Source: a virus. From it: DNA of 49,354 nucleotides. Shown one piece after another: positions 19,801-36,400 of this stretch (positions are counted from its first letter, which is position 1; the number at the start of each line of letters is the position of its first letter). The stretch is from the IMG/VR virus record IMGVR_UViG_3300027977_000051, positions 1 through 49,354 of that record. One strand, given 5' to 3'. The notes under the pieces were generated by a model. That model ran no database searches. It was not told the origin of the DNA and was given only the letters and a program-made list of their open reading frames with translations. A program made the translations under genes and the position numbers.

Positions 19801-22800
19801 CCGTGCCGCCCGCGCTATCATCTGCCACCTGTGCGTCCAGGGCCGCGGTATACAATGGATAGTAGTATCCAGACTGCCCCGAAGTTGTGCCACTGTTGCT
19901 CTGTCCCAATACAGCAAATGGACCCACTGATTTGGTGGTTCCCCCAACCAGTGTCACTGTGGGCGCGGTCACATATCCGCTGCCGCCCTTGGTCACTGCT
20001 ATGGAAGTCACATATTTCTTGTGATTGTCTCTCCAGAACCTGTATGGATATCTGGACATCACTCCCACGTCCGCCACTGGGTCAACGTTCCTGGTATTGC
20101 TTCCGTCATAGAAAGCCGGCAGGTCGAAATCGGTTATGATACCATCTTGTGTGTCTGTGTTGCTGTATCCTAACTTATATTCCCGTATCTTGGTGTGGAA
20201 GGGCTTGACCTCATTGATGTAGTCTTCAACGAAATTCTCATTTCCGATGTTGTAGGTCTTCCTCTGGTCAAGTGGTCTCAGTCGGTTGGTCACGTTTATG
20301 AATGACGTGGTGCTCAACCAGTCCACGTAAAGCTGCTCCTCCAACACCTTCCTCAAACCTATAAAAAATATGTTGTTGTATTCCACTGCCAGGTCGCCCA
20401 CGAATATGTCGTCCCTCAGGGCCCGCAGCACATTGCGAGTCTCGGTGGTTGGCTCCTGGTCGAAGAAATTCTCGTCGAATGTGTCATCCGCGTTGTATCC
20501 GGTGTTGTCGATCGTGTAGTCATACAGAGCAGCGGAGATTTGTATGGTCCCGTTCTGCGTCGCCACGTTCCTCATCTCGTCGGTGGTCTTCTCGAACAAC
20601 TTCCATCCGCCGGTGTCGGCCTTCAGCACTTTCACGATGTCGCCGATCTCCAGCGGCAGAGCATCCATCTCATATTGGAAGTTAACTTGCTTGTCGATCA
20701 ACGTATTCTCGTCATAACCTTTGTCATACCAATCGGCCAGGCGATAATATTTGCTGGTGTTGTACGTCTGTACCTTGGTTCTGTTCCACTCCGGCGCATT
20801 CCATTGATATATCGCCCAGGATCCACGGCTGTTCTCTTCATCGCTGGCAACCAGCACGTTGATGATACCGCTGATGTCTCTGGTGTCGATGTATGTAAGG
20901 TCCGCGTAGCTCTCCACCCTGCTGTCCCATTCTCCCGATGTGCTGGTGGGTTCGGGGTCCTTTGAATTTAAATTGTCATAACCAATGATGTCTGCCAATT
21001 GGTTGTTTTTCAATATGGTGTTGCTGTAGTCTATGATCTCTTTCAGCGCGGCGAACCTATCCAGGTACCAACTCTGCCTCGGCCTGATCCTGTTGCCATA
21101 TCTTTGATTCAATGGAAGAGTGAGATCTGGAACTTCGTTGCCTATCAGATCCTTGCCCACCAAGCTGTCCCACCACTTGTTCTCCAGCAGGGCCTTTGGA
21201 CGATCGTTTTTATCTCCTTGCTTGATGATGTTCCACACAGCGTGTGACTCATCGAGGTTGTCATTTTTCCTGTAGCTTACGTTCAGTATGGTGTTGTCAT
21301 TGACCAGGCTGTTTTTGACATTATAGGTTATCAATGAGTTGTTGCCTGTCACAGCATAATATTTTATTCCTGTGGATAATGGGTTCCTTATCACGTTGGC
21401 CACATAAGCGGCAGTGTTTTTCCTGTCCACCACTGCTTTGCCTTTTGGTGGGAGGAACACAGAGTTCCTGACCCAGAAGTAATAATAGTTCACGTAGCTG
21501 TCCGACACAGGATTATATTTTTGCTTGACTGTGAATACTGTGTTGTCCGGATGCAATGGCCTGCCCGACACGCCGATGGCCAGTCCTGGCGTGGTGTCAG
21601 ACCTCTGGGAATATTCCGATGGCGCAAGTGTAGATTCCACCCACTCATAGATGTCCACTGATGATCCAGGGAAGAGATTGCCCCAATTCTTTGTCTGATA
21701 TTCCACATTCTGCTGCTCGTACCACAACCACCTTACTCTCCCCAAATCCCACCAAACTTCTCCCACATGCTCTTCTCCCCATGCTGTCTTGGCATTGAGC
21801 GTCTTGCCTCCCGTGGCTATGTTGTAAATTGCAGGATCCCATTCTGTCTTGTAATTTATTTCCCTGTCGGCAACTCCCAATATCCTGCCTTTGACGGGAT
21901 CATAATAATCCAGATAGTCAATTATCTCATTCTTTGCCGAATCAAATATAAACACGGAATCTATACGGCTGTCGTCGATGAGGCTTGTTTCAGTTGACAA
22001 CGCAGTCCATGCATAATTTCCCGGAGTGTTGAGGTCGAACACCGTCACAGTGCCGTCGTCAACCCTATAGGTGCTGCCGTCCGTGGTCAACGTGTCGTCA
22101 TCTGGTGATCCAACGAACACAGATGTGTCGGTGATGAATATGCCCCTGCCAAAGTCGTCATTCTCGTTCACGCTGGTGGTCACTAATTTGTCGTCGATAA
22201 CGTACTTGGTGTTGTATTTTGTCGCTGTGAACACTGCTCCAGATCCAATGTTGAGGTCAACTATCAGCGTGTCTCCAAGATCGAACGTGGTTGAGTTGCT
22301 GTCAAATCTCATGGTCCTGCTGTTGCCAAATTTTTCTGCTCCTATCACTATTCTATTCTTCATGCGATTGATCTGCACGGTGGATCCAAATCTTATGTTG
22401 CTGGCCGCTTCGGGGGCAGCTATGGTGTCTGACAGTGTGTAGGTATTTGTCGACCCATCTGCCTTCCATTTGTAGACGTACACTGCGCCGGCGTCGGTCT
22501 GCTCGCCCGCTTCGGTGCCCGGGGCGGAGATCACCAACAGTTCTCCGTCTATGCTCATGGAGATCGCCTCTCCAAAGGCGGTGTTCAACGTGCTGCCATC
22601 AGCGTTGACTCCCTTCAGCGTCTGGCGATGGGTGAATATGTGCTTGGTGCTGCCGTCCTCCACGGTGCTGCCGTCATCGTTGACGCTGCTCCTGGTGAAT
22701 ATCTCCACCATGCCCGCCGATCCCGGGGACACGCTGCTGATGGCTATGATGTCCGCGTTTTCATTGACCGCCACGCGATGACCAAATCTCTTGCCGGATC

Positions 22801-25800
22801 CTGGCTCTGTGCTGAATATCGCTGAGTCTTGCCTCCACACCTGTATGGTGCTGTCTCCCACATCCTTTTGTAGGGTATGCACGTACACCACGCCGGAGTC
22901 TGAGCTCAGTCCTGGCGCCGAGGCGAAGAGGAACTTGGGCCTCGTGGACACCGTGCTGTTGTCCGAAGGTTCAGCTATGGCCACCGACCATCCATAATTC
23001 ATGTTGACCAGCGTGCTGCTGTCGTCCGATGGTGGCAGCACAGTGTGTGACAGGTCGTACTGCTTGTTGGTGTTGTTCCATGCCCAAACTTTCACAATGC
23101 CCACGCCGTCCTGCCTGGTGCTGGTTGGTCCCAGCGTCCTGGTGTAAGGGGCACCGGCCGCTATGTAGTTCTCGTCTGTGCTGATGCACAGTGATTGGCC
23201 TAACCTTGACTCATCAGTATCGCCGTCCGCCATGGCGAAGGATGACACCACTGTGAACAAGTTGCCGGGCAGGTTCTCCTGCCTGAACAGGAAGTGCAGC
23301 GATCCCTGTCCTTGGTCCGGGGCCGCCACGCATATCATCCTGCTGTCGTTCCTGGCCACTATGTTATAACCAAAATCCTGTTGGTTGTCCGCGTCCGGTG
23401 ATGCCAATATTGTGCTGGTGTAGGGATCGGTCTTCTCGTATATCGTCCACCTGCCGTCGGGATTGGTGTCGGCGAACACCCTGTCTCCGTTGACAAAATT
23501 GGTCTGGTCCACGTCTCTGTAGACATTGTAAGATATCCTGTCATTGACCTCATCCATGCTGGAGAACCTGACGCTGACCCATTTGTACACGTTGCCGTAG
23601 GTAACTAATGTGGACTCATCTATCCGCAGGTTCAGAGAGCTCACAACGCTTATGGCTCTGCTTTGATTGAAATTGAATATGACGGAGTTGGCGTTGGGCG
23701 TGCTGATAATCTTGAACACACCATTCAGTTGCGAGAACTGGCTGTTGAGTATCGCAAAATATTCACCCACTTGGAAATTATGCGGATTTGTAAGTATCAC
23801 TTCCACTTGGGTGGCGTTGTTTATCTGCCTCATGGCTATGATTCTCAGGCCAGTTGACGTCAATCGCAGCATGTCCCAATCATTATTTTCTTTTTTGGCC
23901 ATCCAGACTAGGTCATTCTTGGTCACAGATGAAACGTTCAAATTTAATAGATCATTGATGTTAAAGGCCGTGTGGTCCGCATCGATCAACCTAGGATAGC
24001 CAGCAGTTTTGTATTTCTGCACGGAATCTTTGTCAATGCCGGGCTGAGAATAGTCAAACCTAGCAAAAGTATCGTCTGCCATGTACTCCAGGGGTTTGGA
24101 GAATAGCTGTGATTTTATGACCCTAGCTGATTTCTCCCAGTTCGATTGGTCGGCGATATCGTCTAATATTTCTATGCTCTGTATATTGCTGGTGAAGGTG
24201 TCACTCGGCATCCTTATTTGCACTGACTGTGCGTTGTCAACGTTGCCAAATTCTCCCGCACGGATCATCCACTCGGGATAGACTTCCAGATCTATATCCT
24301 CTCCGTAGAACCTGCTCTTGACTAGCTTATCTATGGCGTTCAGCGTGCCCTTCTCACGGATGAATCCCTGATAGAACTTGTATTGGCTTACATCGTTCTG
24401 GAATAGGTTGTCAAGATAATTTCTTGACTGATAACCTGTGAGATGCTGTGCCAATTTCTGCTGTCCTTCATCAAAATTATTGCTCTCCAAGTTGTAAAAA
24501 TCATTGAACTGGGCGATCTTGTAATCAAAATTTGGTATTAGTTGCTGAGTCGGTTTGCTTTTTTTCTGCAGCCAGTTTACTGTTGCGAAAGTGTTTCCGG
24601 AATTATGATTTTTATTGGCCGTGAAAAATCTAGAGTTGTACTCCACTGTGTCACCTATTTGGTAGTCTGTGTTGGCCGTCCATAAGTTTACCTTGGCCTC
24701 ATCAAAAACAAATCCGGGAGAGTAGTAGTCACCATTCCAGTCACCGGTCTTCCACCCGATCAATTTCAATCTCTGTTGCCTGAATCCTGTGGCCAGCTGC
24801 AGGATGATGTCTGAGAACACAGTGGCGTTGTCAAAAAGCAGCAGGTGTTCCTTCTGCACTGCGTTGATGGATATGTTGTATATGCCCGAGTCTGGAAACT
24901 TGCTTACTATCTCGAAAGTGGTGCCCACACGCTTGGTGCTGATGGATTTCTCCGGCATCGTTCGCCCCGAGGCGTCCAGCACAGTGTATTCACCTTGAAG
25001 ATTTCTTAATTTGCCTACCACGCTGTCTCTGGTCACGAGGTTGAATCCTCCAGCGCCTGGGCTCAGCGTGATGGCCGATCCGGGAGCCCATCCCTGCCTG
25101 GTCCAATAGATAAACTCCTTGGCGGACGTTTCCCAGTTTGCCGTTTCCTCCAGCTCCTTGGAGAACCTGTCAAAAACAAATCCCTGCGATTCGAGATATT
25201 TTCCATATCCCGTCAAAAAATCCACCACGGACTGTATGTCCTTGAAAACCGTGCCATAAGTGATGATTTGTTCCACCTGGGAGAAATCTTTGTAAATCAC
25301 TGCTCTGGCGCTGCCGGCCTCGATGTTGTAGCTGTTTCCATTCTTTAGAGGTTGAAAAATTTTGAAGTATGGTTTGATGGTATTGTATCCTATGATCTTG
25401 TAGCCACCCTCCAGAGTACTGCCGTCACCTGAGACAGCTGTGTTGGATTCAACCAACACTCCGGAATATTCAAAAGTGTTTATGGGATTGCTTACCCTGA
25501 ACAGTATCTTATAGTTCTCGTCGGGTATAAATTGCGATCCCGCTGTGGATCCGGGACTCACGCTGTCTGTCAGCACCCTCAGGTTCTGCTTGTCTGAGAA
25601 TCCTCCCAGCTTGTATGACAGTTGCACGTTGAGGTCTTTCATCTTGTCATAGAAAAATACAGCGGGATCGAGATTACATTTGATTAGGTAATTTACTATC
25701 ATTGGCTGGTATCCCGCCGTGATGTATCGTGTGGTGGATTGGGTCAGGGTGTCAACTGTTACCTCTAAGTGATACTTGGCCTGTCGTGTGTTCTGGGCCA

Positions 25801-28800
25801 CCAGCGTGTCCGTGTCTATGATGTTGCCCGCTTTGTTCTCACTTAATCTGCTGTTGTCAAGAAAAAGTCCAAAAAACTTTGCCGGCCTCGTAAGTGCCAG
25901 CAACTTCATCACCGCGAAAGGATATTGTGCGCTCGTCCTCCACGCGGTCTCCGCTGGAGCATGATCACCAAACTTCCATGTCCTGTCAAGTCCGGCAGCC
26001 GCGTAGCTGTCTATAAGTCCGGTCTGCAAAGGTGACAGCAATTGTCCATTGGCATCAACCGGCAGATAATTCAAAAGTCCTGGCCTCACATATCTTGGGT
26101 TAGAAGTGTGCGAGCCGTGATCATATCCACTTGCAAGGTCATTCCATAACAGTTCATTTCCCGAGCTGTATGGTGCTGGACCGTAGTGCTCCACCCACCA
26201 AGCGGGTCTCTCGCTGTAGCCCAACATCTCCCATGGATGTGTGTGCGGCCTGTCGGTGTCATAGAAATGTTTGTATATGCCCCTCCAATATCCAGGCAGA
26301 TATTCTCCATTGATCGAGTCTTTGTTCCTGCTGTAGTTGAAAGTGAAAGCGTTGTTAGATTCGTATGTGTTATTTTTTTGATAGTCCACTCCGTTCCTAC
26401 CAGCCCAAGAATAAAAATCGTGACCCATGATATCATTTATTTCCCTGATGGTGTAATCACCGGCAGTGAATCCCGATGGACTGACTTCTGATTTGGGCAA
26501 TAGCTTGGCATCATATTGAGTCTTGCAGTTGTTGTATATCCTTTTCTCTAATTCCAGCAACACGTCGTCCCTGTAATCTCCATGCGCCAGTGTCCTGCTG
26601 CCGTCGTGCCCTACTATCACATATGCCGGTGACACATAAGTTTCGTCCAACACTTTTTCTGGCCTGTAACGAGGATACATGCCCAGTTTGGTTGGCGTAG
26701 GTGGGATGAAGCTGCCGGTAGTGTCATTGTAATCCTTGATCTGGATCACGTCACCTTCAGTCAATGTGGCGGTTATGTTGACGCTGTCATCTGCGTCACT
26801 GAACGTGTAGTCATAACCATTCAACAGCTGGACGCCATTGAGATACAAATACACCGCGCGGTTGCTGGGGATCGCGTCGTCAAATTGGCTGTCTATGGAA
26901 TATTGAGTCTCGGTGCCGTCCTGCACCGTGTAGGTCCTGGTGCTGACTTTTTCTCCATGACCAACCATGTCCTCATAGTAGAATGGAAAACTGGTGTTCT
27001 TCTGCTTGGTCATTATCCTCAATATCTCGTCCACCGCCTGCGCGGCGTCCTCGTATGGTTTTGCTATGGTGAAGTTGGCCTGGAACGCCTCTTTGAATTT
27101 TTGATATTCCATCGAGCAATAATCGATTGACGATATGGCGTTGGCGTGTTGATCTATGAGCAGGAACACGGCCTGTGGTAGCGGAGAGGAATGCTGCAGT
27201 ATGGTTCCTCCCTTGGTTCTGACATCTGGCAGATCACGTAGGTTGCTGTCTCCCGGGGTGTCGCCGGTCATTTCGACATTTTTCTCATTTATGTCGTGCA
27301 AGTGGTTCATTATCTGGCCAAATGTGAATTCTCGCAATTGCTCATTGAATGGATTCACTGCCAAGTTTTCCGGTATCTGATATAAACCTTTGCCCTTGAT
27401 CTTCTTGGCACTGCTGAAGCATGTTATTTTGACAATGTCTCCCACCGACAGATCGTATGTGAACTTGACGTATTTGTTGGTGGTTCCATTGACCAATGTG
27501 TAATCGGTCGTTATGTTTTGCACCTTATGATTCACGTCCACCTGCACCTCCAGGTCTGGTAGCTGTGCACTGTTGGCAAATACATCTACGGGAAACAATC
27601 TCAACTCATTTGATTCCACTATGAACGTTCTCAACACCCTCTGCCTGCTGGGCTCAGCCATCTGCACCCAGGATGTTCTCGGTAGATTATGGGTCCTATC
27701 AATTATATAATTCACATGTCCGGTACTGAAATTTTTTGATACCATGGAATCCCCGCTCTTGTATGTGAATGATGATGATGCGATGTCGGATGAAAAAACT
27801 ATGTCGCCCACGTTGTTGATGGTGTTGTATTTGACCCTGATACCCAGCACAGTGTCTATGGGTGACGTGTCGGAAGTCTTGTATTCGAACAGCGCCGCGC
27901 CCTCGAATGTGGAATTTGGATATATCGCGGGATCATTGAATGCCACGTGATCATCGTCCTCTATGACAAACAATGGTTTTTGATTGATGGCAGTCTTAGT
28001 TTGTCCCTGTTGCCACGTTGCTGTGGACTCCGTGTAATAAAGTGTTTTGCCTTGGTAGACCGATCCCAGTTCGGCGTAAACGGTCTGTCCATCTTGCGGA
28101 AGACCGTCCGACTCCAGAGTAAGGTTGATCTTGGACACTCCAGCTATGGTCACGAAGTTTACCTTATAGATCCGGTTATTGACCGTGGCGTCGGTGTCGG
28201 CCGTGAACAGCACACGCATGCCCTGGGAAAATGGCACCCCGTCCACGATGTATCCCAAAGAATTTGGAATGGCAGAGAACACGTCTGTGGTGAAGGCATC
28301 CACCAGCGCCACGGAGTTTAGTCCCTGTGTACCGTGATCGAACAATTGCAGTCCGGAATCAAATTCTATTATGGGCCTCTTGGCCCTGCTGGTCTCTGAC
28401 AGTGACGTGGCGTTGCCGTTGACCTGATCCGCGGCCGCGATCGCGGACCTGTGGAACCATCTGTTGTATCTGCTCCAGGCGTTGTTGTCAAAGCTGTCTC
28501 GCTTGATGGTGATGTAGTCCGGCGTTTCGGGTCTGTAGAAACTGATGGCGTAGGGTCGTGTGTCATAGGCCACACTATCGTAGAGCTCAGTGGTCTCTGT
28601 TGAATAATGTTCGGGAGTTATCAATTTAGCAGTGTCCGTGAGAGTGATATGATCTCCCACTCCTTCCACATAATATTCTCTATTGGCGTATGCGGCACTG
28701 GTGGTGTTTGATCCAAATTTAACTTTCATTCCATTGGTCAGTTTGGTGCCAGTTCCCATGGTGTAATTTTTGCTGCCCAATATTTCTTTTTCCACATTAA

Positions 28801-29686
28801 TTTTGGTGGCCGCGGTGATGGTCTTGATTTGGAGTACTCCTTGCATAGCCTGGTGATTGCCGCATTGATAGTACAATATGTCAGGTGCGTTGTTCGGCAC
28901 GGTGAATGTCAATGTGCCCACCTGGGTGCCGTTGCCTGTGACAGACGTGGAATATATCACCGACGTGCTGCCGTCCTCGGCTATGCCGGTCTTGAATGGC
29001 TCCGTCATGATGTAGAATGGATGCCCGGTGACCTGGAGCGCGAATTTATAGGTGTTTCCCCTGTACAAGGTCAGGGTTGGGTTGGCAGTGTCTCCGTGTG
29101 TGCTGAAAGTGTAGGCACCGGTGCCCGCGTTGGCAACCGTGATCTCTGTGACAGAGTTTGGTCCGTTGTTCGATATCAACACTGGGTTGGGACCTTCTGG
29201 CAGCCAGTAATACTCCCTGTAGTTCACGAGTTTGTCAAAATCCACTGCTGGGTTCCAGGCGTAGACTGTTTGCTTGTTCAACCTGCCATGGTCATCCACG
29301 TTGCCGCCAAAGAACTTTATTTGGTTGATGTAGTCATCATAAGTTGCCGTGAACTTCACCTGGTCTTCGGGATTGATGGATGATGTGTCCTTGTCAGTAT
29401 AGGTCACAGTGGGCTCCAGCTGATAATTTGCCCTGTCCTCGCTGGTTGATTCTATGTAGCTGTCCGCGGCCTGCCTGGTGTATGAATATTCTCTTCCGAT
29501 GTATCCGTCTAATCTGGTCAGGCTGCCGGGCTGTATAAGTTGGTCCAGGGTGCTGGTGAGGAACCTGTGGTTGTTGTCGGTCCTGTAGAAGGCCGGCAGA
29601 TGTGCAATGGACCTGCGCAGCGTCACCCCCTGTGCGTCCGTAACCACCTCATAATTTGTCTGGCTATTGATAGGAGAATCTGCCAT
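16811..29686 (-). CDS. Giant baseplate/tail structural protein (4291 aa) with cupredoxin-like domain and FG-GAP-like propeller
   Basis: One unbroken reading frame of 4291 residues, three bases after gp6 and in the place of T4 gp7 (about 1030 residues), so a wedge or fibre-like baseplate component is likely. The N-terminus (SIAHLPAFYRTDNNHRFL) is typical of giant structural proteins beside gp6 in marine T4-like phages. Residues about 203-290 look like a cupredoxin, with H222, C275, H278 and M281 in the type-1 copper order. Residues about 2080-2550 hold seven FG-GAP-like units (FGYNIVARND, LGQSLCISTD, FGHRVAVNEN, FGEAISMSID and others). From about 3500 to the end come repeated beta modules of the type GDGSTTxF...VxVDG...DYTV. 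At least 15 DGST tetrapeptides occur. It probably assembles as part of the baseplate periphery. Confidence 0.8.
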   Translation of the reverse strand: MADSPINSQTNYEVVTDAQGVTLRRSIAHLPAFYRTDNNHRFLTSTLDQLIQPGSLTRLDGYIGREYSYTRQAADSYIESTSEDRANYQLEPTVTYTDKDTSSINPEDQVKFTATYDDYINQIKFFGGNVDDHGRLNKQTVYAWNPAVDFDKLVNYREYYWLPEGPNPVLISNNGPNSVTEITVANAGTGAYTFSTHGDTANPTLTLYRGNTYKFALQVTGHPFYIMTEPFKTGIAEDGSTSVIYSTSVTGNGTQVGTLTFTVPNNAPDILYYQCGNHQAMQGVLQIKTITAATKINVEKEILGSKNYTMGTGTKLTNGMKVKFGSNTTSAAYANREYYVEGVGDHITLTDTAKLITPEHYSTETTELYDSVAYDTRPYAISFYRPETPDYITIKRDSFDNNAWSRYNRWFHRSAIAAADQVNGNATSLSETSRAKRPIIEFDSGLQLFDHGTQGLNSVALVDAFTTDVFSAIPNSLGYIVDGVPFSQGMRVLFTADTDATVNNRIYKVNFVTIAGVSKINLTLESDGLPQDGQTVYAELGSVYQGKTLYYTESTATWQQGQTKTAINQKPLFVIEDDDHVAFNDPAIYPNSTFEGAALFEYKTSDTSPIDTVLGIRVKYNTINNVGDIVFSSDIASSSFTYKSGDSMVSKNFSTGHVNYIIDRTHNLPRTSWVQMAEPSRQRVLRTFIVESNELRLFPVDVFANSAQLPDLEVQVDVNHKVQNITTDYTLVNGTTNKYVKFTYDLSVGDIVKITCFSSAKKIKGKGLYQIPENLAVNPFNEQLREFTFGQIMNHLHDINEKNVEMTGDTPGDSNLRDLPDVRTKGGTILQHSSPLPQAVFLLIDQHANAISSIDYCSMEYQKFKEAFQANFTIAKPYEDAAQAVDEILRIMTKQKNTSFPFYYEDMVGHGEKVSTRTYTVQDGTETQYSIDSQFDDAIPSNRAVYLYLNGVQLLNGYDYTFSDADDSVNITATLTEGDVIQIKDYNDTTGSFIPPTPTKLGMYPRYRPEKVLDETYVSPAYVIVGHDGSRTLAHGDYRDDVLLELEKRIYNNCKTQYDAKLLPKSEVSPSGFTAGDYTIREINDIMGHDFYSWAGRNGVDYQKNNTYESNNAFTFNYSRNKDSINGEYLPGYWRGIYKHFYDTDRPHTHPWEMLGYSERPAWWVEHYGPAPYSSGNELLWNDLASGYDHGSHTSNPRYVRPGLLNYLPVDANGQLLSPLQTGLIDSYAAAGLDRTWKFGDHAPAETAWRTSAQYPFAVMKLLALTRPAKFFGLFLDNSRLSENKAGNIIDTDTLVAQNTRQAKYHLEVTVDTLTQSTTRYITAGYQPMIVNYLIKCNLDPAVFFYDKMKDLNVQLSYKLGGFSDKQNLRVLTDSVSPGSTAGSQFIPDENYKILFRVSNPINTFEYSGVLVESNTAVSGDGSTLEGGYKIIGYNTIKPYFKIFQPLKNGNSYNIEAGSARAVIYKDFSQVEQIITYGTVFKDIQSVVDFLTGYGKYLESQGFVFDRFSKELEETANWETSAKEFIYWTRQGWAPGSAITLSPGAGGFNLVTRDSVVGKLRNLQGEYTVLDASGRTMPEKSISTKRVGTTFEIVSKFPDSGIYNISINAVQKEHLLLFDNATVFSDIILQLATGFRQQRLKLIGWKTGDWNGDYYSPGFVFDEAKVNLWTANTDYQIGDTVEYNSRFFTANKNHNSGNTFATVNWLQKKSKPTQQLIPNFDYKIAQFNDFYNLESNNFDEGQQKLAQHLTGYQSRNYLDNLFQNDVSQYKFYQGFIREKGTLNAIDKLVKSRFYGEDIDLEVYPEWMIRAGEFGNVDNAQSVQIRMPSDTFTSNIQSIEILDDIADQSNWEKSARVIKSQLFSKPLEYMADDTFARFDYSQPGIDKDSVQKYKTAGYPRLIDADHTAFNINDLLNLNVSSVTKNDLVWMAKKENNDWDMLRLTSTGLRIIAMRQINNATQVEVILTNPHNFQVGEYFAILNSQFSQLNGVFKIISTPNANSVIFNFNQSRAISVVSSLNLRIDESTLVTYGNVYKWVSVRFSSMDEVNDRISYNVYRDVDQTNFVNGDRVFADTNPDGRWTIYEKTDPYTSTILASPDADNQQDFGYNIVARNDSRMICVAAPDQGQGSLHFLFRQENLPGNLFTVVSSFAMADGDTDESRLGQSLCISTDENYIAAGAPYTRTLGPTSTRQDGVGIVKVWAWNNTNKQYDLSHTVLPPSDDSSTLVNMNYGWSVAIAEPSDNSTVSTRPKFLFASAPGLSSDSGVVYVHTLQKDVGDSTIQVWRQDSAIFSTEPGSGKRFGHRVAVNENADIIAISSVSPGSAGMVEIFTRSSVNDDGSTVEDGSTKHIFTHRQTLKGVNADGSTLNTAFGEAISMSIDGELLVISAPGTEAGEQTDAGAVYVYKWKADGSTNTYTLSDTIAAPEAASNIRFGSTVQINRMKNRIVIGAEKFGNSRTMRFDSNSTTFDLGDTLIVDLNIGSGAVFTATKYNTKYVIDDKLVTTSVNENDDFGRGIFITDTSVFVGSPDDDTLTTDGSTYRVDDGTVTVFDLNTPGNYAWTALSTETSLIDDSRIDSVFIFDSAKNEIIDYLDYYDPVKGRILGVADREINYKTEWDPAIYNIATGGKTLNAKTAWGEEHVGEVWWDLGRVRWLWYEQQNVEYQTKNWGNLFPGSSVDIYEWVESTLAPSEYSQRSDTTPGLAIGVSGRPLHPDNTVFTVKQKYNPVSDSYVNYYYFWVRNSVFLPPKGKAVVDRKNTAAYVANVIRNPLSTGIKYYAVTGNNSLITYNVKNSLVNDNTILNVSYRKNDNLDESHAVWNIIKQGDKNDRPKALLENKWWDSLVGKDLIGNEVPDLTLPLNQRYGNRIRPRQSWYLDRFAALKEIIDYSNTILKNNQLADIIGYDNLNSKDPEPTSTSGEWDSRVESYADLTYIDTRDISGIINVLVASDEENSRGSWAIYQWNAPEWNRTKVQTYNTSKYYRLADWYDKGYDENTLIDKQVNFQYEMDALPLEIGDIVKVLKADTGGWKLFEKTTDEMRNVATQNGTIQISAALYDYTIDNTGYNADDTFDENFFDQEPTTETRNVLRALRDDIFVGDLAVEYNNIFFIGLRKVLEEQLYVDWLSTTSFINVTNRLRPLDQRKTYNIGNENFVEDYINEVKPFHTKIREYKLGYSNTDTQDGIITDFDLPAFYDGSNTRNVDPVADVGVMSRYPYRFWRDNHKKYVTSIAVTKGGSGYVTAPTVTLVGGTTKSVGPFAVLGQSNSGTTSGQSGYYYPLYTAALDAQVADDSAGGTGTSTIFTFVEYPGLEFHMPTTGQNIANTDRPSGYDVYTTADNTQATATAIVQGGSVTSIRLLTPGTNYTATPTVVLTGGGAGGTTPANFARAYANLTNDVVRDIHTTIKFDRVQSTATVLLWEANRDYAFNDLIRYEQGFYKVNSGFTSTAEFKDGLPYLTKLRGDEPYLTAAERTLGMYDPISGMPGNELSQVMTGVDYGGVMVTGLAFDNSQGWDRSPWYDNPWDSYGLSRVQTFYGDGSTTGFTFSTAPSATDVYTVYINGVRQTSLVFRGDGSTKTFTVIPDDSAVAGTGDEIQFILFNDDGVLTPTDDKTLDSIITGGLFGSAVGIAPSDIILEGDGFVTPETSYAPEENLPGSMFDTVDIKVYTTPESGVPFIMMKNYIGNASTTTFAIGQMPGTLESVIVMIDGQTKRLTTDYTVDVDAKTITMLAAPAANAKISIKSFAMSGSNYIVINTLIGDGSTTSFVTAARESFQLDSAMSQLYVTVDGVPTTAYTYTTANKLITLTFNTAPAIGKSIQIAAFNQPAGSGRAQAEIRAEQKVHDGGNRYTLTYPSGSIGPFSGLTMIEVGGKILRGPDNTYYAGDGSTVTYSLGTDPANAVTSATQAQVFVNGTKKDLGTDYTVNLGTQQVQLVSAPASTDVVAVSVLLDNHYYTEGADIIFRPAQLATDGITLTSGTTFSTTTFNNALGMNQRREIFAGNSTGEFVLQDTPMNSDYLFVWLNGQALTQGYDFTFGSNYFVDGKKLKISGISLTATDRVDVMYFAVESAKLATGFRIFKDMLNRTFFKRISSDDTTALAAALTEDATSITVADGSKLATPPGGSVPGVIFIDKERIEYFIKNNNTLSQLRRGTLGTGIRTHTSGTQVVDASGSQTVPYAETVFTKTSLSDGSTAQFPTSIAAATPNELDVFVGGKRLPHISEDGSTANFTVDGSTANVVLASVPAAKVQVKVVQKRGRVWYTTGSGTASDGKGLQKSTTNQARFIAGEPTNAPE

Positions 29687-29688
29687 CG

Positions 29689-32600
29689 CTAGTATCCCGT
29701 TCCGCTACTGCCCGTGCCGGATCCCGATCCGATTCTTCCTGTGGTTGATTGAGATGCTGCTGACCTTGACCTGTTGCTGGTGGTTGTGCCCGTGGTGCTG
29801 GTCACCACAGTGCCGCTGATGGCAAGCTGATTGGCTCCTATCGCGTCAATTATCACCACGTCCTCGACTGTGGCTCCACTTATGAATATCTCGTCCGCGG
29901 CGCTGCTTATCTGGAACAGGGATCCGAACACCTGCTCATTTTGATTGGGCACTATGACCACAGTCAAAAGGTCTGGTGCCATCTGGTTGTGGATGTAGGC
30001 TGCCAGCTCCGTGAAATAGAATGTGTCACCAAAATCAAAGTTGTTCAGCGCGAAAAATTCGTTGATGGCTTGGATGACCCTGGTCTTTATAACCGCCGCC
30101 GTGACATTAGTGGAGGCATTCTTGACCACCTTGAAAGTTGCCTGGAACTGTTCCTCTGCCTTGCTTCCAAAAAGTATTTTGTATTTCACTGGGTGGTACA
30201 CTATCTGGTCCGACAGGCCTTTCAATGGATTCAACACGCCGGAGTAGGATATTCTTAATTGGTCTGATGTGGATGCGGCAGGTTCATCTCCTCCCCTGGC
30301 CAGCCATGTCCTGTACAACTGATCGTATGACCTCTCCAGCATGTAGATGTCCATGATGTTGGTGTGCGAGGGATCTATTCGTGTGCCTTGTCCGGCATAA
30401 TGCTTGTAAAGAAATTCGATATTTGCCCGTCCCTTCCTGGCATAGTAGTCGGTGCTTGTCGACAAGGTGACTGAAGCCTTGTCATATATCTTGACCACGT
30501 CATCATTGTAGAAGTAAAATAACTGCCCGTCCTCATAATTGCTGGGCAGAGTGATGCTGGATTCCGTGGCTGCCAACACATAGTTGGTGGCCGCGTGTGG
30601 CCTGTAGCGTTGTATGTTGTCATAGCTATTGTATTTTTCAAAAAATACAAATTTTGTGCTGACGTTTGTGTCTGGTTCAACTATGATGTTGAATATCTCG
30701 GGATTGTCTACCACTCCGTCATCGTCGCCGTCAAAAAATCCCACTTTTATTTTCCTGTTGTCCTGGTATCCATCGCTCTCCTGCACCACTCCCACCACTT
30801 GCCAGTCTATGGGGTAGCCCACCGCGGATCCCGTGTTGGGCAATGTGTTGCTCTTTAGGATCCTCACCGTGTCCTTGACGGACCTCCCTGACACATAATC
30901 ATATATCCTCTCCTGCTCATCAAAATGGAATTTATTGTCTGCTAGCGACTCAAATATGTAGTCAGTGTTCCTGTAGGTCACCGTGTAGGTGTTGCCGTCA
31001 TTCACGAACCTGAACCACCAGCTGCGGTCCTGATTGGAGTTTGTGGTATCGCCGGCGTCGGCCAGCGAAAATACCTCGGATGAGCTGAGATTGGCACCGG
31101 TAATCACCTTCCACTGTGCGTTCTCCTCGTCGTATCTCAATCCAAACTCCTCGAATATCTCGATCCTGTCCTGCAGGTCGGTTTTAAGAGCAGCATCGAA
31201 CACCGTGACGAACTGCGGTATGACCGCTGCCAGAACCGAGTCCGCTGGCAACACATCATTCAGCGTGATGGGTCCAAGACCTGACTCTAAATTTCCCGCG
31301 CCTCCGTTGGCCCCATCGCCCGCGACCAGGGCTATTTTGCTCCACTGCCTGTCCTGTGCCAATCCGGTCGTGGATGAAACCAACTTGCCGTTCAAAAATT
31401 TTCTGGTGTCCGGAGAAATGAATTTGATCAATGCGCCGGGCTTGGCGTATTTTAGATTGGTGGTGGAGAAATCACCCACAACCAGTGGTCCCGCCCCCAT
31501 GAAGTAACCTGTGTTGGTGTTGGTTCCCACAGAAGAGCTTACCCAATCTGCTGCCAGCGCGGACAGGTTCTTGGTAGGATAGTTGTCATAATAGAATTGC
31601 CTGGCCGAGGCCTTGTTCAGCTTGGTCTCCACCAATCTATTGATCACGTCCAATATTTCATTCCTGTTGGTGAAAGAGAAAGTGAACTGCGGGGTGCTGG
31701 TCTCGCGATAGATTATACCGTCATCTGCGAAAACCGACACGTTGCTGTATGAACCCGAGGGATCTATGATTTCCTTGGCCCTGCTGATGCCACTCGCGCT
31801 CCTGTTCACTGCCTTGACCTTGATTATCTCCTGAGACGCCGACAGCGGCACGACGTTGTAGTCCTCTGCCGTGATCATCCTGTTCTGAGAATAATACACC
31901 TGTGGTGCCTTGGTCCGGATGCTGTCGTTGCTCTCTGTGGCAGCTGCGTTGTATATGCTTTGCTGCAGTTCGCAAGATATGGTAAGCACCTGCTCACCAC
32001 CGTTGGCATCTATGTATGTCATGCTGAATGATATGCCTTGCATGTCTGATGGCTGCACGGAAAAATTAGAGTTGGCGCTGGTCCTGTAGTAGACTCTGAA
32101 TTTTCCCGATGGTATGTTGGAAAAATTTCCGTCCCCGAACACCAGATCGATGGCGTCGTTGTTCTTGGTCACGACGTTGTAGATATCTCTCACGTCGCTG
32201 TTTAGACTGTTGTAGATCACATTGCTGCCGCTGAGGTCTGGCACCTTGGTCCAAAATTTTTCTATCTGTCCAAAGTCATCCAGCTCATATAACCAAACGT
32301 CCGTGTTGTTTATGTTGTTGACGTTGACAGCCTGCACGTAGTTGGTAGTTGGTTGATTTATGCCGAACTCCAGATTGGCCAATGATCCCTGTTTCAGCAG
32401 TGCGAAAAATCCAGTGTTGGGGCTGGAGTCTCCAGCGCCGTCGCTCCTGTACAGATATGAGAATCCCGTTCCCGGCACCGGTGTCTGCTCGTATATGGAT
32501 TCGGAATTGATCAATGTGGATGGCACTATCTCAAATGTCCTGGCCACTCCGCTGATGCCCCTGGTGAATGTGAATATGGGAAGGTCGGTGTTGTTGCTGT

Positions 32601-33168
32601 TGACCATGTAGACTTCTGTCTTTATTCCACCTATGTTGTCCGCCTCCTTTGGCTTTCCAAAAATTTGTCCGGACACGTTGGCGGCGTTCAGTATGCTTAT
32701 GAACTGTTCCCTGGCATTGGCGTTGGTGGCGTCATTCCATGCCACGGTGACATTGGCAAGGCTGTTTCCGCTGCTGTCCCTCACGTCCTGAGTCGTGCTC
32801 ACCGAGCTGAATTTCAGCAGTCCGGTAGCGGGCAGGTTCCTCTTGGCGTTGTAGTTGATCAGCCGCGCCAGCCTCAGTATGCTGTTCCTTCTTGATGCGG
32901 TCTCTAAAAAATTCTCTCTGGCGTTGAGGTCCACCCTGAAGCTGAGACTCTGGGCCACGTAGGCGATGAGATCTATCAGCGCGATGTATTCCGAGCTCTC
33001 CACGAAATCATTAAAATTCTCGGGATAGTTCTCCCTGAGATAGGCTATCATGGTCCTGCGCAGGGTCTCGAAATCGTAGGATTTGAAATCAGCCTGTTGG
33101 AAACTGGTGTAGATCTTACGCCAATCCTCGGCTACTAGCAATCGGTTCTGTCTGTCAGTGCTGGCCAT
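29689..33168 (-). CDS. 6: Baseplate wedge protein gp6
   Basis: 1159 residues, longer than T4 gp6 (about 660) as is usual in marine relatives. The N-terminal ASTDRQNRLLVAEDWRKIY, YDFETLRRTMIAYLRENYPE, SSEYIALIDLIAYVAQSLSFRVDLNAREN and RLINYNAKR stretches are the signature of the gp6 / baseplate-J-like family. QVYYSQNRMITAEDYNVVPL and a C-terminal FFALNNFDFGDTFYFTELAAYIH region complete the pattern. gp6 joins the wedges into a ring around the hub and triggers sheath contraction. The ATG at 33168 lies 15 bases downstream of a late-promoter-like AATAAATA. The gene is followed, three bases on, by the giant baseplate gene. Confidence 0.93.
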   Translation of the reverse strand: MASTDRQNRLLVAEDWRKIYTSFQQADFKSYDFETLRRTMIAYLRENYPENFNDFVESSEYIALIDLIAYVAQSLSFRVDLNARENFLETASRRNSILRLARLINYNAKRNLPATGLLKFSSVSTTQDVRDSSGNSLANVTVAWNDATNANAREQFISILNAANVSGQIFGKPKEADNIGGIKTEVYMVNSNNTDLPIFTFTRGISGVARTFEIVPSTLINSESIYEQTPVPGTGFSYLYRSDGAGDSSPNTGFFALLKQGSLANLEFGINQPTTNYVQAVNVNNINNTDVWLYELDDFGQIEKFWTKVPDLSGSNVIYNSLNSDVRDIYNVVTKNNDAIDLVFGDGNFSNIPSGKFRVYYRTSANSNFSVQPSDMQGISFSMTYIDANGGEQVLTISCELQQSIYNAAATESNDSIRTKAPQVYYSQNRMITAEDYNVVPLSASQEIIKVKAVNRSASGISRAKEIIDPSGSYSNVSVFADDGIIYRETSTPQFTFSFTNRNEILDVINRLVETKLNKASARQFYYDNYPTKNLSALAADWVSSSVGTNTNTGYFMGAGPLVVGDFSTTNLKYAKPGALIKFISPDTRKFLNGKLVSSTTGLAQDRQWSKIALVAGDGANGGAGNLESGLGPITLNDVLPADSVLAAVIPQFVTVFDAALKTDLQDRIEIFEEFGLRYDEENAQWKVITGANLSSSEVFSLADAGDTTNSNQDRSWWFRFVNDGNTYTVTYRNTDYIFESLADNKFHFDEQERIYDYVSGRSVKDTVRILKSNTLPNTGSAVGYPIDWQVVGVVQESDGYQDNRKIKVGFFDGDDDGVVDNPEIFNIIVEPDTNVSTKFVFFEKYNSYDNIQRYRPHAATNYVLAATESSITLPSNYEDGQLFYFYNDDVVKIYDKASVTLSTSTDYYARKGRANIEFLYKHYAGQGTRIDPSHTNIMDIYMLERSYDQLYRTWLARGGDEPAASTSDQLRISYSGVLNPLKGLSDQIVYHPVKYKILFGSKAEEQFQATFKVVKNASTNVTAAVIKTRVIQAINEFFALNNFDFGDTFYFTELAAYIHNQMAPDLLTVVIVPNQNEQVFGSLFQISSAADEIFISGATVEDVVIIDAIGANQLAISGTVVTSTTGTTTSNRSRSAASQSTTGRIGSGSGTGSSGTGY

Positions 33169-33211: not shown

Positions 33212-33622
33212 TTAAGACAGGCGCAGAAGCGAGTTATCATCAAAACTGAAGGTCAGTTTCTCGGTAATATTGTATGGAAGATAGGATATAGTGGCCTGAA
33301 CAGCTATGCCCTTTTCGTATTCGCTCACGGTGATTTCTGAGGTACTGATCCTAGGGTCAGCATTGAGATTCTGCGTGATGTCATCCGCTATGGCCTGCTT
33401 CAAAGCATTGGTCAGCGGCTCGTGTATGCAGTCATATATGATGGTGCCGAACTCGGGGTTCTCCACCCGCTCGCCCTTGCGGACGCTGAGTCTGTTGATG
33501 AGATCCTGCTTTATTAGCTCAAAATCATACAGCTTGAAGTTGGTCTGGTCGGCCCTAGAACTGAATCCCTTGAAAACCTGCCCCGATTTGCCAAAGCTGC
33601 CGTTGCTGTCATTGTATGCCAT
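33212..33622 (-). CDS. 25: Baseplate wedge protein gp25
   Basis: 136 residues, close to T4 gp25 (132). FKLYDFELIKQDLINRLSVRKGERVENPEFGTIIYDCIHEP contains the conserved 'G-E-R-x-x-x-P-x-F-G ... D ... EP' pattern of the gp25 / W-like baseplate family, and the beta strand ITVSEYEKGIAVQATISYLP follows as expected. It binds the inner baseplate and helps start sheath assembly. It begins 9 bases after gp5 ends in the transcribed direction and shares its operon. Confidence 0.93.
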   Translation of the reverse strand: MAYNDSNGSFGKSGQVFKGFSSRADQTNFKLYDFELIKQDLINRLSVRKGERVENPEFGTIIYDCIHEPLTNALKQAIADDITQNLNADPRISTSEITVSEYEKGIAVQATISYLPYNITEKLTFSFDDNSLLRLS

Positions 33623-33631
33623 ATTAATCCT

Positions 33632-36400
33632 CTAAAAAAAACTTCCGATACTGAAATTTGAAAGTGCTCCACCAAAGTCTAGGCTGGCCAGATCAAAGCT
33701 AGCTATGCTTCCAATATCAAATCCTCCAAAAACATCTCCTATATTTGTGCCGATCTCGCCCAAAACACTTCCAGCGGAGCCAAATATTCCTTCGATCCCA
33801 CCCGAGATCACGCTGGTGATGTTGGTCAGCGAAGTTATCTCTCCGGCTATGATGTTTCTGAACTGATCAGTAACGATACTTATGCCTGTCTGTATGGCGG
33901 CGTTGCCTAGTCCCTGTATCAATCCCTGCGGAGAAAGATTACCCAGGTTGATGCCGGACAGGACGTTGTTTCCAAATGCTCCCAGCGCAGGCCCAAATAT
34001 GCTGTCGGCATTTTTGAACAGGTCCGTCAGCCCACCACCAAATACCGCGGTATCCGCAAATGATGACGCCGAGGGCAAGCTGGCCCAGTCCACGTCGAAT
34101 CCAAGACCCTCGAACTGCTTAAGAAGATCTATTTCTTGCGATATGTCCACGTCGCCAAATATGTTTCCTCCAAAGTTTTTGAAGGCGTCGGCAAAGTTGA
34201 TGTCTCCCAGTCCAACTGCTCCAAAGGCCTCGGCAAAGTTTGCGGAGCTTGCAATCTGCTGCATGTCGTTGGCCAGCGCATATGTGTCTATGCCATCGTT
34301 TCTGAAGAAATCCTTGACCGCTGAAATGTTCCTGTCAGAGAATATGGAGCTGGCGACGTCCTTGACTTGTCCTTGGATGGCGTTGTTGAGGGCGTCCCCC
34401 ACCGTGGTCTTCAGGGCGTTTTCGGCCGTTGCGGTCAGCTGCTTCACTATCCCATTTGGATTGATGTCGGATAAATTTGTGATGACCTTGCCCATGTCTC
34501 CCAGTGTATATAATACCCCCGCTTGGTTGACGAACACCTGGTCCTTGAACAGGTTACCTAGTTCTCCGCCCGCGGCTCCCGTGATCCTGTTGATGACCTG
34601 ATTGGACACGTCACTGATGCCTGGCAGCAATGGTCTGATGGCCAGTGGTCCCGAATCTGCTAGATTGAAGATTGTGCTGTAATTCTGTGTGAACTCGGCG
34701 GTGGCTTTCTGTATCGCTGCAATATCTGTCTTGCTTGGACATACTTCTCCGATGTATTTTTCCAGATCGGCCTGGTATTGTCCTAACCTGCATGCCGGCA
34801 CTAGGCTTAGTCTCATTTTATTTTCTTGATGTCCCAGCGTGCCTGGCTTGTTGGCATCTTCTCTCCTGCCTGCAGATGTGAATGCTTTGAAATTGTCATA
34901 GTGCCACAGGAATGGTTCGTGCGTGGGCACTCGCATGCCCGACATGCCTGGTATGCTCCTGTCCTGCCTCAATACCCCCACAGTTCCTTTCAGTATCGGT
35001 GTCACATCGGGCACCTGGATCTCTGCCGTTCCTGTGCCATTGGGCTGACCAAATCCCGTCCTCTGCAGCGGTTTCAATAGATTTGGATCCACCGGCATGC
35101 TGTTGAAATGAACCTGGCTGCCCACGAGATGCACCTGCCCAGATGCCTGATGTATCTGGTTGCCTCCCGCTGCCTGCGTGTAAATGCTCATGCCCGTGCG
35201 CAGGCTGTAGTAGCCCTTGTCCACCGAAACATTCATGGCACGGCTGGCTATCTGGTTGATGATGGAACCGTCTATGCTGACGAAGCCCTTGATCGTCCTG
35301 TCCAGGGGATCCTCTCCCAGGTGCTCGTTCGCTTTGATCTTTATGTTCCTGTTGGCGTACATGTTGATGTCGCCCTCGGAATGGAAATTGATGTCTCCAC
35401 CTGACCTGATGTTGTAGCCTTTCTGGGCGTATATGTCCACGGCGCCATCGCCACTGAACTCCATCCACACGGTGCCCTTGGCGTTGGCCAAGTAAATGAC
35501 TCCTGCCGTGTCGTGCATCAGCAACTGGTGTCCGGAACTGGTCCTCAATCGTATCAACTGATTGTCTCCCTCTGCATCTCCGTCATCCATAACAAAAGTA
35601 TGTCCTGCGGATCTCACCACCGGCACGTCCTCTTGGGCGTCTATGGGTCCTAGTTTTGCTTTCCTGCCTGCTGGATCACTCCTGCCGGGCGTGCTGATTC
35701 CAAAAACTGCACTGGGGCTCTCCCTGCGTGCGGAGCTGGTGGTTGTCCCCCTCACGGTGTCCTGGCTGAGTCCTTGCTCCCTTAGGGTGTTGGCGAATGG
35801 ATGTATTGCCTTGCGCAGCCTGTCTGTGCTGCCAAGTTTGTTGGCTTCAGCATACATCTTCCTGTTGAGTTCGGCTGCCGGCACAATATCTGTGCCGTAT
35901 GTGTCTTTCTTTAGATCGTCGGTGCTGTTCTCAGAACTTTGCTCTCCGACTGTGTCTCTACTGGCTGCTATTCCTGGTATCATGTGATTGGTCAGGGGCT
36001 CCTGCACACAACCAAACCAGAATCCCTGTGACACTTTTCCTTCGACGAATATAACCATGACCCTGCTGTCTATGTCTGGTGGCACCATCCACATTCCGTA
36101 GCTGTGAGAGCCATCTTCGTACTTGCTGATGTCTTTGGTCTCTCCACTGCCTGCAAGCGCCTGCACGCTCTTGGAGCCATAAAATGGCATCAGATACTGC
36201 ACGTCATAGAGTTGTCCAGCATATCCTTCGTTGACGCCGGCCAAGCTGGGTATCAACACTCGCAGTCCCCCCATCTTTCCGGGGTCCACGTTGTCCTTGA
36301 CTATGCCTATGTATGGTCCTGGGTTGACCTCTGTGTAGGTCGAGCTCCTGTTCTGCCTGTTAGGCGTTGATGTGTCTCCGTATTTCCTTGACATTGACAT
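33632..36400 (-). CDS. 5: Baseplate hub / tail spike protein gp5, without lysozyme domain
   Basis: 922 residues. The N-terminal OB-fold region (PGPYIGIVKDNVDPGKMGGLRVLIP ... MWMVPPDIDSRVMVIF) matches gp5/VgrG proteins. The needle is a beta-helix of strands such as QLIRLRTSSGHQLLMHD, GVIYLANAKG, AVDIYAQKG, DINFHSEGDINMYANRNIKIKA. No T4-type lysozyme domain is seen between them, as in other marine T4-like phages. The last about 430 residues are an Ala/Gly/Phe/Ile-rich extension not present in T4 gp5, ending in a Phe-Gly-Ser-rich tail. The start overlaps the upstream stop as TAATG with GGAGGAG before it. gp5 forms the membrane-piercing spike of the hub. Confidence 0.88.
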   Translation of the reverse strand: MSMSRKYGDTSTPNRQNRSSTYTEVNPGPYIGIVKDNVDPGKMGGLRVLIPSLAGVNEGYAGQLYDVQYLMPFYGSKSVQALAGSGETKDISKYEDGSHSYGMWMVPPDIDSRVMVIFVEGKVSQGFWFGCVQEPLTNHMIPGIAASRDTVGEQSSENSTDDLKKDTYGTDIVPAAELNRKMYAEANKLGSTDRLRKAIHPFANTLREQGLSQDTVRGTTTSSARRESPSAVFGISTPGRSDPAGRKAKLGPIDAQEDVPVVRSAGHTFVMDDGDAEGDNQLIRLRTSSGHQLLMHDTAGVIYLANAKGTVWMEFSGDGAVDIYAQKGYNIRSGGDINFHSEGDINMYANRNIKIKANEHLGEDPLDRTIKGFVSIDGSIINQIASRAMNVSVDKGYYSLRTGMSIYTQAAGGNQIHQASGQVHLVGSQVHFNSMPVDPNLLKPLQRTGFGQPNGTGTAEIQVPDVTPILKGTVGVLRQDRSIPGMSGMRVPTHEPFLWHYDNFKAFTSAGRREDANKPGTLGHQENKMRLSLVPACRLGQYQADLEKYIGEVCPSKTDIAAIQKATAEFTQNYSTIFNLADSGPLAIRPLLPGISDVSNQVINRITGAAGGELGNLFKDQVFVNQAGVLYTLGDMGKVITNLSDINPNGIVKQLTATAENALKTTVGDALNNAIQGQVKDVASSIFSDRNISAVKDFFRNDGIDTYALANDMQQIASSANFAEAFGAVGLGDINFADAFKNFGGNIFGDVDISQEIDLLKQFEGLGFDVDWASLPSASSFADTAVFGGGLTDLFKNADSIFGPALGAFGNNVLSGINLGNLSPQGLIQGLGNAAIQTGISIVTDQFRNIIAGEITSLTNITSVISGGIEGIFGSAGSVLGEIGTNIGDVFGGFDIGSIASFDLASLDFGGALSNFSIGSFF

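What the first reader, a model, noticed from the sequence alone, without database searches (positions are those of the whole stretch)
28817..29080. Cupredoxin-like domain with full copper-ligand set in the giant baseplate protein
Residues about 203-290 have the plastocyanin-like pattern: TYKFALQVTGHPF, then TFTVPNNAPDILYYQCGNH and QAMQG, so that H222, C275, H278 and M281 stand in the type-1 copper order. A copper-site-like domain in a phage tail protein is unexpected; it may bind metal for stability or contact the host surface.
Basis: partly seen in the sequence, partly recalled or inferred. Interest (0 to 1): 0.7.

Follow-up and report, generated by a model that had tools for sequence, protein, structure and literature searches.

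The report
Copper-protein domain in phage tail protein
A giant tail protein of an uncultured phage carries a plastocyanin-like domain with all four residues that hold copper in blue copper proteins, and related domains recur in the tail proteins of many marine phages, so their particles may carry copper.

Summary
Residues 183-292 (window 28811-29140, minus strand) of a 4291-residue virion protein are predicted with good confidence as a cupredoxin sandwich; the best solved matches are pseudoazurin, rusticyanin, laccase and copper nitrite reductase. H222, C275, H278 and M281 stand in type-1 copper order with the short amicyanin-type loop C-x2-H-x2-M. The domain is not a one-off. It is inserted at one site of the giant protein in 80 of 80 loci found through the neighbouring segment, and is absent from that site in the five cultured jumbo-phage homologues aligned. 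Related copies lie in cyanophage tail-fibre connectors and fibres (338 of 50,697 phage records). The ligands are among the most conserved residues and are lost together: of 267 unique copies, 260 keep His, Cys and His, four lose all three, two lose Cys and the second His, one loses Cys alone. The best explanation is a copper-binding cupredoxin module used as a tail building block, in which metal stabilises the fold; a role in host contact or redox triggering is open. Copper binding itself is inferred, not shown. Ten literature searches found no report of it.

The parts
16811..29686 (-). giant virion structural protein, 4291 aa; stands after the wedge-subunit gene, the place of T4 gene 7 (position inferred)
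   Evidence: phrog_10938 'virion structural protein' E=0; PA5oct homologue noted ESI-MS/MS in its record
28811..29140 (-). cupredoxin domain, residues about 183-292
   Evidence: AlphaFold2 model pLDDT 84.6, pTM 0.78; PDB fold matches to cupredoxins and multicopper enzymes
29021..29023 (-). His222, N-terminal copper ligand candidate
   Evidence: aligned with the GH of azurin 2aza in a weak phmmer alignment; 93% weighted conservation
28862..28864 (-). Cys275, thiolate ligand candidate
   Evidence: aligned with the Cys of pseudoazurin 2ux6 and nitrite reductase 6hbe; 92%
28853..28855 (-). His278, second His ligand candidate
   Evidence: same alignments; 92%
28844..28846 (-). Met281, axial ligand candidate
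   Evidence: same alignments; 91%; Gln in 8 of 270 unique copies
29171..29629 (-). conserved N-terminal segment before the insert (residues 20-172)
   Evidence: shared with 59 cultured jumbo-phage records
27407..28711 (-). segment after the insert used as C flank (residues 326-760); backbone of the giant protein resumes
29689..33168 (-). baseplate wedge subunit homologue
   Evidence: phrog_10646 E=1.9e-291
33212..33622 (-). baseplate wedge subunit homologue
   Evidence: phrog_261 E=2.7e-14, phrog_43 E=3.7e-14
33632..36400 (-). baseplate hub subunit and tail lysozyme homologue
   Evidence: phrog_13211 E=5.7e-33; PF04717

Best explanation
Residues 183-292 are a cupredoxin domain with an intact type-1 copper site (His222, Cys275, His278, Met281), inserted as a module into the N-terminal part of a giant baseplate-associated virion protein. 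It most likely works as a beta-sandwich building block of the tail, like the Ig-like domains of other phages (recalled), but one that binds copper. The protein is built into the virion in the cell, takes up a copper ion there or at lysis, and the metal locks the ligand loop and stiffens the domain. Shown: sequence, predicted fold, ligand order and spacing, strong and joint conservation, modular insertion. Inferred: copper occupancy, exposure on the surface, and the stabilising role.
For: Fold: pLDDT 84.6 and pTM 0.78; Foldseek has 178 PDB chains at E<=0.001, best 2ux6 at 1.7e-5, and of the 50 rows shown 49 bear titles of cupredoxins or multicopper enzymes; VIA-align Z 10.7, rmsd 2.8 over 103 residues to 2dv6_A, 190 of 999 chains at Z>=8. 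Ligand loop: C-x2-H-x2-M in all 236 HCHM unique copies examined, the same length as the loop of 2ux6, a pseudoazurin with engineered amicyanin loop. Conservation: the four ligands are within the eight most conserved of 112 columns over about 76 effective sequences; His and Cys codons vary between synonyms (216 CAT/47 CAC; 191 TGT/69 TGC; 195 CAT/66 CAC) while the residue stays. Joint loss: of 267 unique copies covering the three columns, 260 keep all; in the 7 without Cys the second His is lost in 6 and the first His in 4, against 0 of 260 for both when Cys is kept; Gly28, Tyr91 and Pro86 of the domain numbering stay in all 7. Axial Met becomes Gln in 8 of 270, a swap known from stellacyanins (recalled). 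Sample not chosen by the domain: 78 of 80 full set. Modularity: direct junction without the domain in RaK2 and Vibrio 2.275.O homologues; a discrete confident block in a 421-residue model.
Against: No copper was measured, and no coordinates of the model were available, so the ligand geometry was not checked. The match to curated copper families is weak: the window domain reaches 25.8 bits against a cut-off of 27 for PF25489 and does not hit PF00127; 6 of 52 members hit PF00127, best E 2.3e-4. In the PDB profile search two protein-G fusion chains (E 2e-4, 4e-4) stand above all cupredoxins (E 0.017 and weaker), so sequence E-values there are not decisive. Foldseek TM-scores are modest, 0.38-0.54 by query length in the rows shown. 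Seven unique copies without the Cys exist, from about six lineages, so copper is not needed by every tail that has the domain. The stabilising role has no direct evidence.
Confidence: 0.6

Rival explanations
1. Host contact: the copper domain, or the copper in it, is part of what the phage touches first, for example a surface copper-binding or uptake protein, by analogy with the Trojan Horse proposal for iron in tail fibres.
For: Copies lie at the C-terminus of cyanophage tail-fibre connectors and inside fibre proteins, often in several copies. 329 of the 338 phage records with it are named after Synechococcus, Prochlorococcus or cyanophages. Metal in tail fibres as a host-attachment device is proposed for iron (PMC11705849, passages).
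Against: In the giant protein the domain is strongly conserved at one site (80 of 80) and does not look like the variable tip expected of a receptor binder (inference). No receptor or host is known for this phage.
Confidence: 0.2
2. Redox role: the type-1 site exchanges electrons with the host surface or periplasm and the change of state triggers a step of infection, or protects the particle from oxidants.
For: The ligand set is that of electron-transfer cupredoxins, with the amicyanin loop length.
Against: No partner oxidoreductase domain was found by Pfam in the giant protein. Several copies in some proteins speak for a structural use (inference).
Confidence: 0.1
3. Empty relic: the domain is a beta-sandwich spacer that descends from a cupredoxin; the ligand residues are kept for packing of the loop and bind no metal in the virion.
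For: Ligand-less copies occur naturally with other conserved residues of the fold kept (L090 of S-B43, L307, L323/L325, L383, L221).
Against: Joint loss of Cys and His while other conserved residues mostly stay, and synonymous codon change under residue identity, point to a shared metal, not to packing of single residues.
Confidence: 0.15
4. Another metal, such as zinc, sits in the site.
For: Cys/His/His/Met can bind Zn(II) (recalled); the metal cannot be read from sequence.
Against: Ligand order, spacing and fold are those of type-1 copper proteins.
Confidence: 0.1

Closest known systems
Small cupredoxins (amicyanin, pseudoazurin, plastocyanin, azurin, rusticyanin)
   Same: Beta-sandwich fold match, His-Cys-His-Met order, C-x2-H-x2-M loop as in amicyanin.
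   Different: Those are free-standing electron carriers (recalled); this is an insert in a virion protein of 4291 residues. The residue after the first His is Pro (HPF), where azurin has Asn (alignment). Pfam PF00127 is not reached by the window domain.
Cupredoxin domains of copper nitrite reductases and two-domain laccases
   Same: Best structural Z (2dv6_A 10.7) and sequence match of the ligand loop (6hbe CSIHPYM). His-Pro at the first ligand recalls multicopper oxidases (recalled).
   Different: No second cupredoxin domain was found by Pfam in the window protein.
C-terminal domain of cyanophage gp9, baseplate wedge tail-fibre connector (phrog_677)
   Same: Same domain family, E 1.4e-20 to profile positions 310-410 of 412, ligands kept in the examples read.
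   Different: There it ends a small connector protein; here it is inserted near the N-terminus of the giant protein. The giant-protein copies form their own group (support 95/94).
Pfam PF25489 At5g54830-like domain
   Same: 45 of 52 members match at E<=0.1, best 9.6e-7.
   Different: Window domain is under the curated cut-off (25.8 of 27 bits); the copper status of that family was not looked up here.
Giant virion protein of jumbo phages (PA5oct, RaK2, Atu_ph07, SCTP-2, Vibrio 2.275.O)
   Same: Backbone on both sides of the insert is homologous.
   Different: No cupredoxin domain at the site in the 5 compared; none of the 59 records' organisms is among those with the domain.
Iron-binding HxH fibres and the Trojan Horse hypothesis (PMC11705849, passages)
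   Same: Metal held by a marine phage tail protein, conserved ligands (proposed there).
   Different: Iron at His-x-His pairs of a trimeric fibre, against a single-chain cupredoxin site here.

Membership tests
Cupredoxin superfamily (fold) | Greek-key beta-sandwich | tested here: met
   49 of 50 Foldseek rows (one title uninformative) and all 50 VIA rows shown are cupredoxin-fold proteins; Z up to 10.7. Strand order was not traced by hand.
Type-1 (blue) copper proteins | His, then Cys-His-Met in the last loop, in that order | tested here: met
   H222, C275, H278, M281; loop aligned with 2ux6 and 6hbe; His222 with azurin only in a weak alignment
Type-1 (blue) copper proteins | ligands conserved in homologues | tested here: met
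   251 of 270 HCHM, 8 HCHQ; 78 of 80 in the sample not chosen by the domain
Type-1 (blue) copper proteins | one copper bound, band near 600 nm, EPR | not testable with these tools
   needs protein
Type-1 (blue) copper proteins | ligand distances in the model | not testable with these tools
   coordinates of the model were not available
Pfam PF00127 Copper-bind (plastocyanin/azurin) | curated profile cut-off | tested here: not met
   window domain: no match; 6 of 52 relatives match at E<=0.1, best 2.3e-4
Pfam PF25489 At5g54830-like | curated profile cut-off 27 bits | tested here: not met
   25.8 bits, E 1.2e-5
NCBIfam amicyanin/plastocyanin/rusticyanin | profile match | tested here: not met
   window domain: 0 families; 4, 1 and 1 of 52 relatives match weakly
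phrog_677 gp9 connector | whole-length match | tested here: not met
   only positions 310-410 of 412 match: shared domain, not the same protein
phrog_10938 jumbo-phage virion structural protein | long match over the backbone | tested here: met
   E=0, 1209.5 bits, 4 stretches; tblastn 58 records

The most novel reading that the evidence does not exclude
Particles of abundant marine phages are copper proteins: each carries several type-1 copper sites on its infection apparatus, loaded with copper from the host or seawater, and the phage uses that copper (its affinity or its redox state) to reach or trigger on the host, a copper counterpart of the iron Trojan Horse idea and a standing copper pool in seawater.
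Probability: 0.2. Interest if true: 0.85.

Novelty: new variant of a known kind. Interest (0 to 1): 0.6.

Why it matters
Virion copper proteins have, as far as ten full-text searches show, not been described for tailed phages, yet the ligands are under clear selection in a domain found in hundreds of phage sequences, including cultured cyanophages. That makes a direct test possible with particles already in laboratories: measure copper in purified virions. If present, copper becomes part of how these phages are built or attach, and phages enter the marine copper budget.

Tried and rejected
Chance resemblance: rejected, since relatives and fold agree. Annotated AMG plastocyanin (petE): cyanophages do carry petE as a separate gene (PMC2984593, passages), but this is an inserted domain with its own close relatives, so I did not file it as petE; no direct comparison with a phage PetE was run. 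Sequence search of the PDB with the single domain gave azurins only at E 0.03-0.06, and the profile search put two protein-G fusion chains first; I treat those as spurious because the matched part is the protein-G segment with its tag linker (my reading) and rely on fold comparison instead. A scan with the segment after the insert (residues 380-560) as a single sequence gave only 4 loci, of no use for presence/absence; the alignment of the segment before it worked. A paper on the tail of cyanophage A-1(L) was checked for cupredoxin or metal: nothing apart from copper grids (PMC10966104, passages). Conservation counts from pattern scans lean towards the ligand motifs, because some patterns contain them; hence the separate sample and the subset with ligand-free patterns, 69 of 70 HCHM. 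Rows dropped: of 518 copies, those with under 80 of 112 columns or an identical sequence were left out, giving 270; 3 of these lack a residue at one of the three columns, giving 267. The Fisher value of 1.5e-11 treats related copies as independent and is only a rough guide. L053 and L393 are one contig (Cys to Gly by one base), which may be a sequencing error. The 421-residue model is poor in its first 130 residues and in parts of its end (mean pLDDT 66), so no arrangement in the baseplate is claimed.
Full report
What was claimed and whether it is there. The window is a 49,354-base virus record. The reading frame 16811..29686 on the minus strand encodes 4291 residues. The domain runs from about residue 183 to 292.

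What the protein is. Upstream lie homologues of two baseplate wedge subunits and of the hub with lysozyme. The gene therefore stands where T4 has gene 7 (recalled order); that it is a baseplate part is inferred from this position.

Fold. An alignment of 38 sequences gave an AlphaFold2 model with mean pLDDT 84.6 and pTM 0.78. Foldseek against the PDB gave 178 chains at E<=0.001; of the 50 rows shown 49 have titles of cupredoxins or multicopper enzymes and one title is uninformative (3cvd_A); the first is a pseudoazurin with an engineered amicyanin ligand loop, 2ux6, at 1.7e-5. VIA-align gave Z 10.7, rmsd 2.8 over 103 residues, to the N-terminal domain of a nitrite reductase, 2dv6_A, with 190 of 999 chains at Z>=8. 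TM-scores are modest. The viral library gave many cyanophage tail-fibre and connector proteins, and also beta-sandwich proteins of Pithovirus and Marseillevirus records.

Ligand site. The profile of 52 relatives aligns the loop CgnHsaM with CTPHPFM of 2ux6 and CSIHPYM of nitrite reductase 6hbe, without gaps. The spacing C-x2-H-x2-M held in all 236 HCHM unique copies tested. His222 aligns with the GH of azurin 2aza, but only in an alignment with E 0.03 for the sequence. Curated families are reached only weakly: PF25489 at 25.8 of 27 bits for the window domain, PF00127 by 6 of 52 relatives, NCBIfam amicyanin by 4, halocyanin by 3, plastocyanin by 1 and rusticyanin by 1 of 52.

Conservation and joint loss. 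Over 255 unique near-complete copies, about 76 effective, the four ligand columns are among the eight most conserved of 112, at 93, 92, 92 and 91%. In a later, larger set, 518 copies gave 270 unique near-complete ones: HCHM 251, HCHQ 8, other combinations 11. Of 267 with a residue at the first three ligand columns, 260 keep His, Cys and His, four lose all three, two lose Cys and the second His, one loses Cys alone. Conserved non-ligand residues mostly stay in the seven Cys-less copies, except that the Pro next to the first His goes in 3 of 7. His and Cys codons vary among synonyms. This is the pattern expected of residues that share a metal. The seven come from about six lineages, because L323 and L325 are close relatives.

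Bias check. Some search patterns contain ligand residues, so I also searched with the conserved segment before the domain (alignment A3). 367 relatives were found, 80 kept; the domain is in 80 of 80, HCHM in 78, one HSNM (L383) and one HGHM (L393). The kept 80 are the nearest relatives and overlap with the first set of loci.

Modularity and spread. In all 80 first loci the ORF has the N-terminal segment, and in 77 also the segment after the domain, with near-constant distances; the other 3 lacked a match to the latter. In RaK2 and Vibrio 2.275.O homologues the two segments join almost directly; PA5oct and SCTP-2 have short stretches there, and Atu_ph07 has a different insert. 59 cultured phage records carry the N-terminal segment; none of their organisms is among the 356 records that match the domain at E<=1. 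A tree of 94 representative copies puts the giant-protein copies in one group, with two genome contigs that hold the same protein (support 95/94), so one acquisition is enough, though the tree has few resolved forks. Elsewhere the domain ends cyanophage gp9 connectors, sits in fibre proteins, in some in several copies, and occurs in two Autographiviridae records, P-SCSP2 and P-GSP1. 338 of 50,697 phage records match at E<=0.01, 329 of them named after Synechococcus, Prochlorococcus or cyanophages.

How it most likely works. The conserved site argues for a bound metal, and fold and order argue for copper. The use in many tail proteins, in some in several copies, argues for a structural block whose metal stabilises it. 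Host contact by copper, in the manner proposed for iron in tail fibres (PMC11705849, passages seen), or a redox trigger, are not excluded. Natural copies without ligands show that some tails do without it.

Literature. Ten searches gave no paper, by listing, on cupredoxin domains in phage virion proteins; three papers were searched for passages. The library lacks most subscription journals, so this is weak evidence of absence.

Noticed in passing
16811-29686, residues 238, 1421, 2338, 2344, 2363, 2410, 2536, 3535, 3570, 3757, 3882, 4187, 4220, 4229: The tetrapeptide DGST occurs 14 times in the giant protein against 0.18 expected from its composition, with varied codons; one copy lies in the cupredoxin domain. 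Probably a recurrent turn motif.
   Followed up: partly
window 16811-29686, residues 1669-1698 and 2370-2405: The giant protein also has a carbohydrate-binding module CBM_5_12 and an FG-GAP repeat, both over the Pfam cut-off.
   Followed up: no
L177, L138, L142, L154 and others: A subfamily has Gln in the axial place (WCHYHTGQG), 8 of 270 unique copies, as in stellacyanins (recalled).
   Followed up: partly
L090 (Synechococcus phage S-B43), 1501-1749: Copy with His, Cys and His all replaced (FAVM) in a cultured phage: a natural ligand-less control.
   Followed up: partly
BFVD A0A481Z6J5, A0A481Z7Q7, A0A481YVH3: Small 'beta-sandwich' proteins of Pithovirus LCPAC302/304 and Marseillevirus LCMAC201 match the model at 4.7e-8 to 1.3e-7; ligands not looked at.
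   Followed up: no
L105 3020-6040: A Bacteroidetes MAG contig of 108 kb encodes a 1011-residue frame with the domain and ligands, with a possible signal peptide by eye; may be a cellular relative.
   Followed up: no
window 40879-41901 (+) and 41888-43681 (+): Neighbouring genes with Metallophos and AAA_23/SMC_N domains, a likely recombination nuclease pair like T4 gp47/gp46 (naming recalled).
   Followed up: no
window 12404-13213 (+) and 1158-2666 (-): QueC-like match at the C-terminus of a 269-residue protein and a radical SAM protein of 502 residues.
   Followed up: no
window 10756-12258 (-): Weak match to the Mtd_N domain of phage tropism proteins, 21 bits against a cut-off of 26.3.
   Followed up: no
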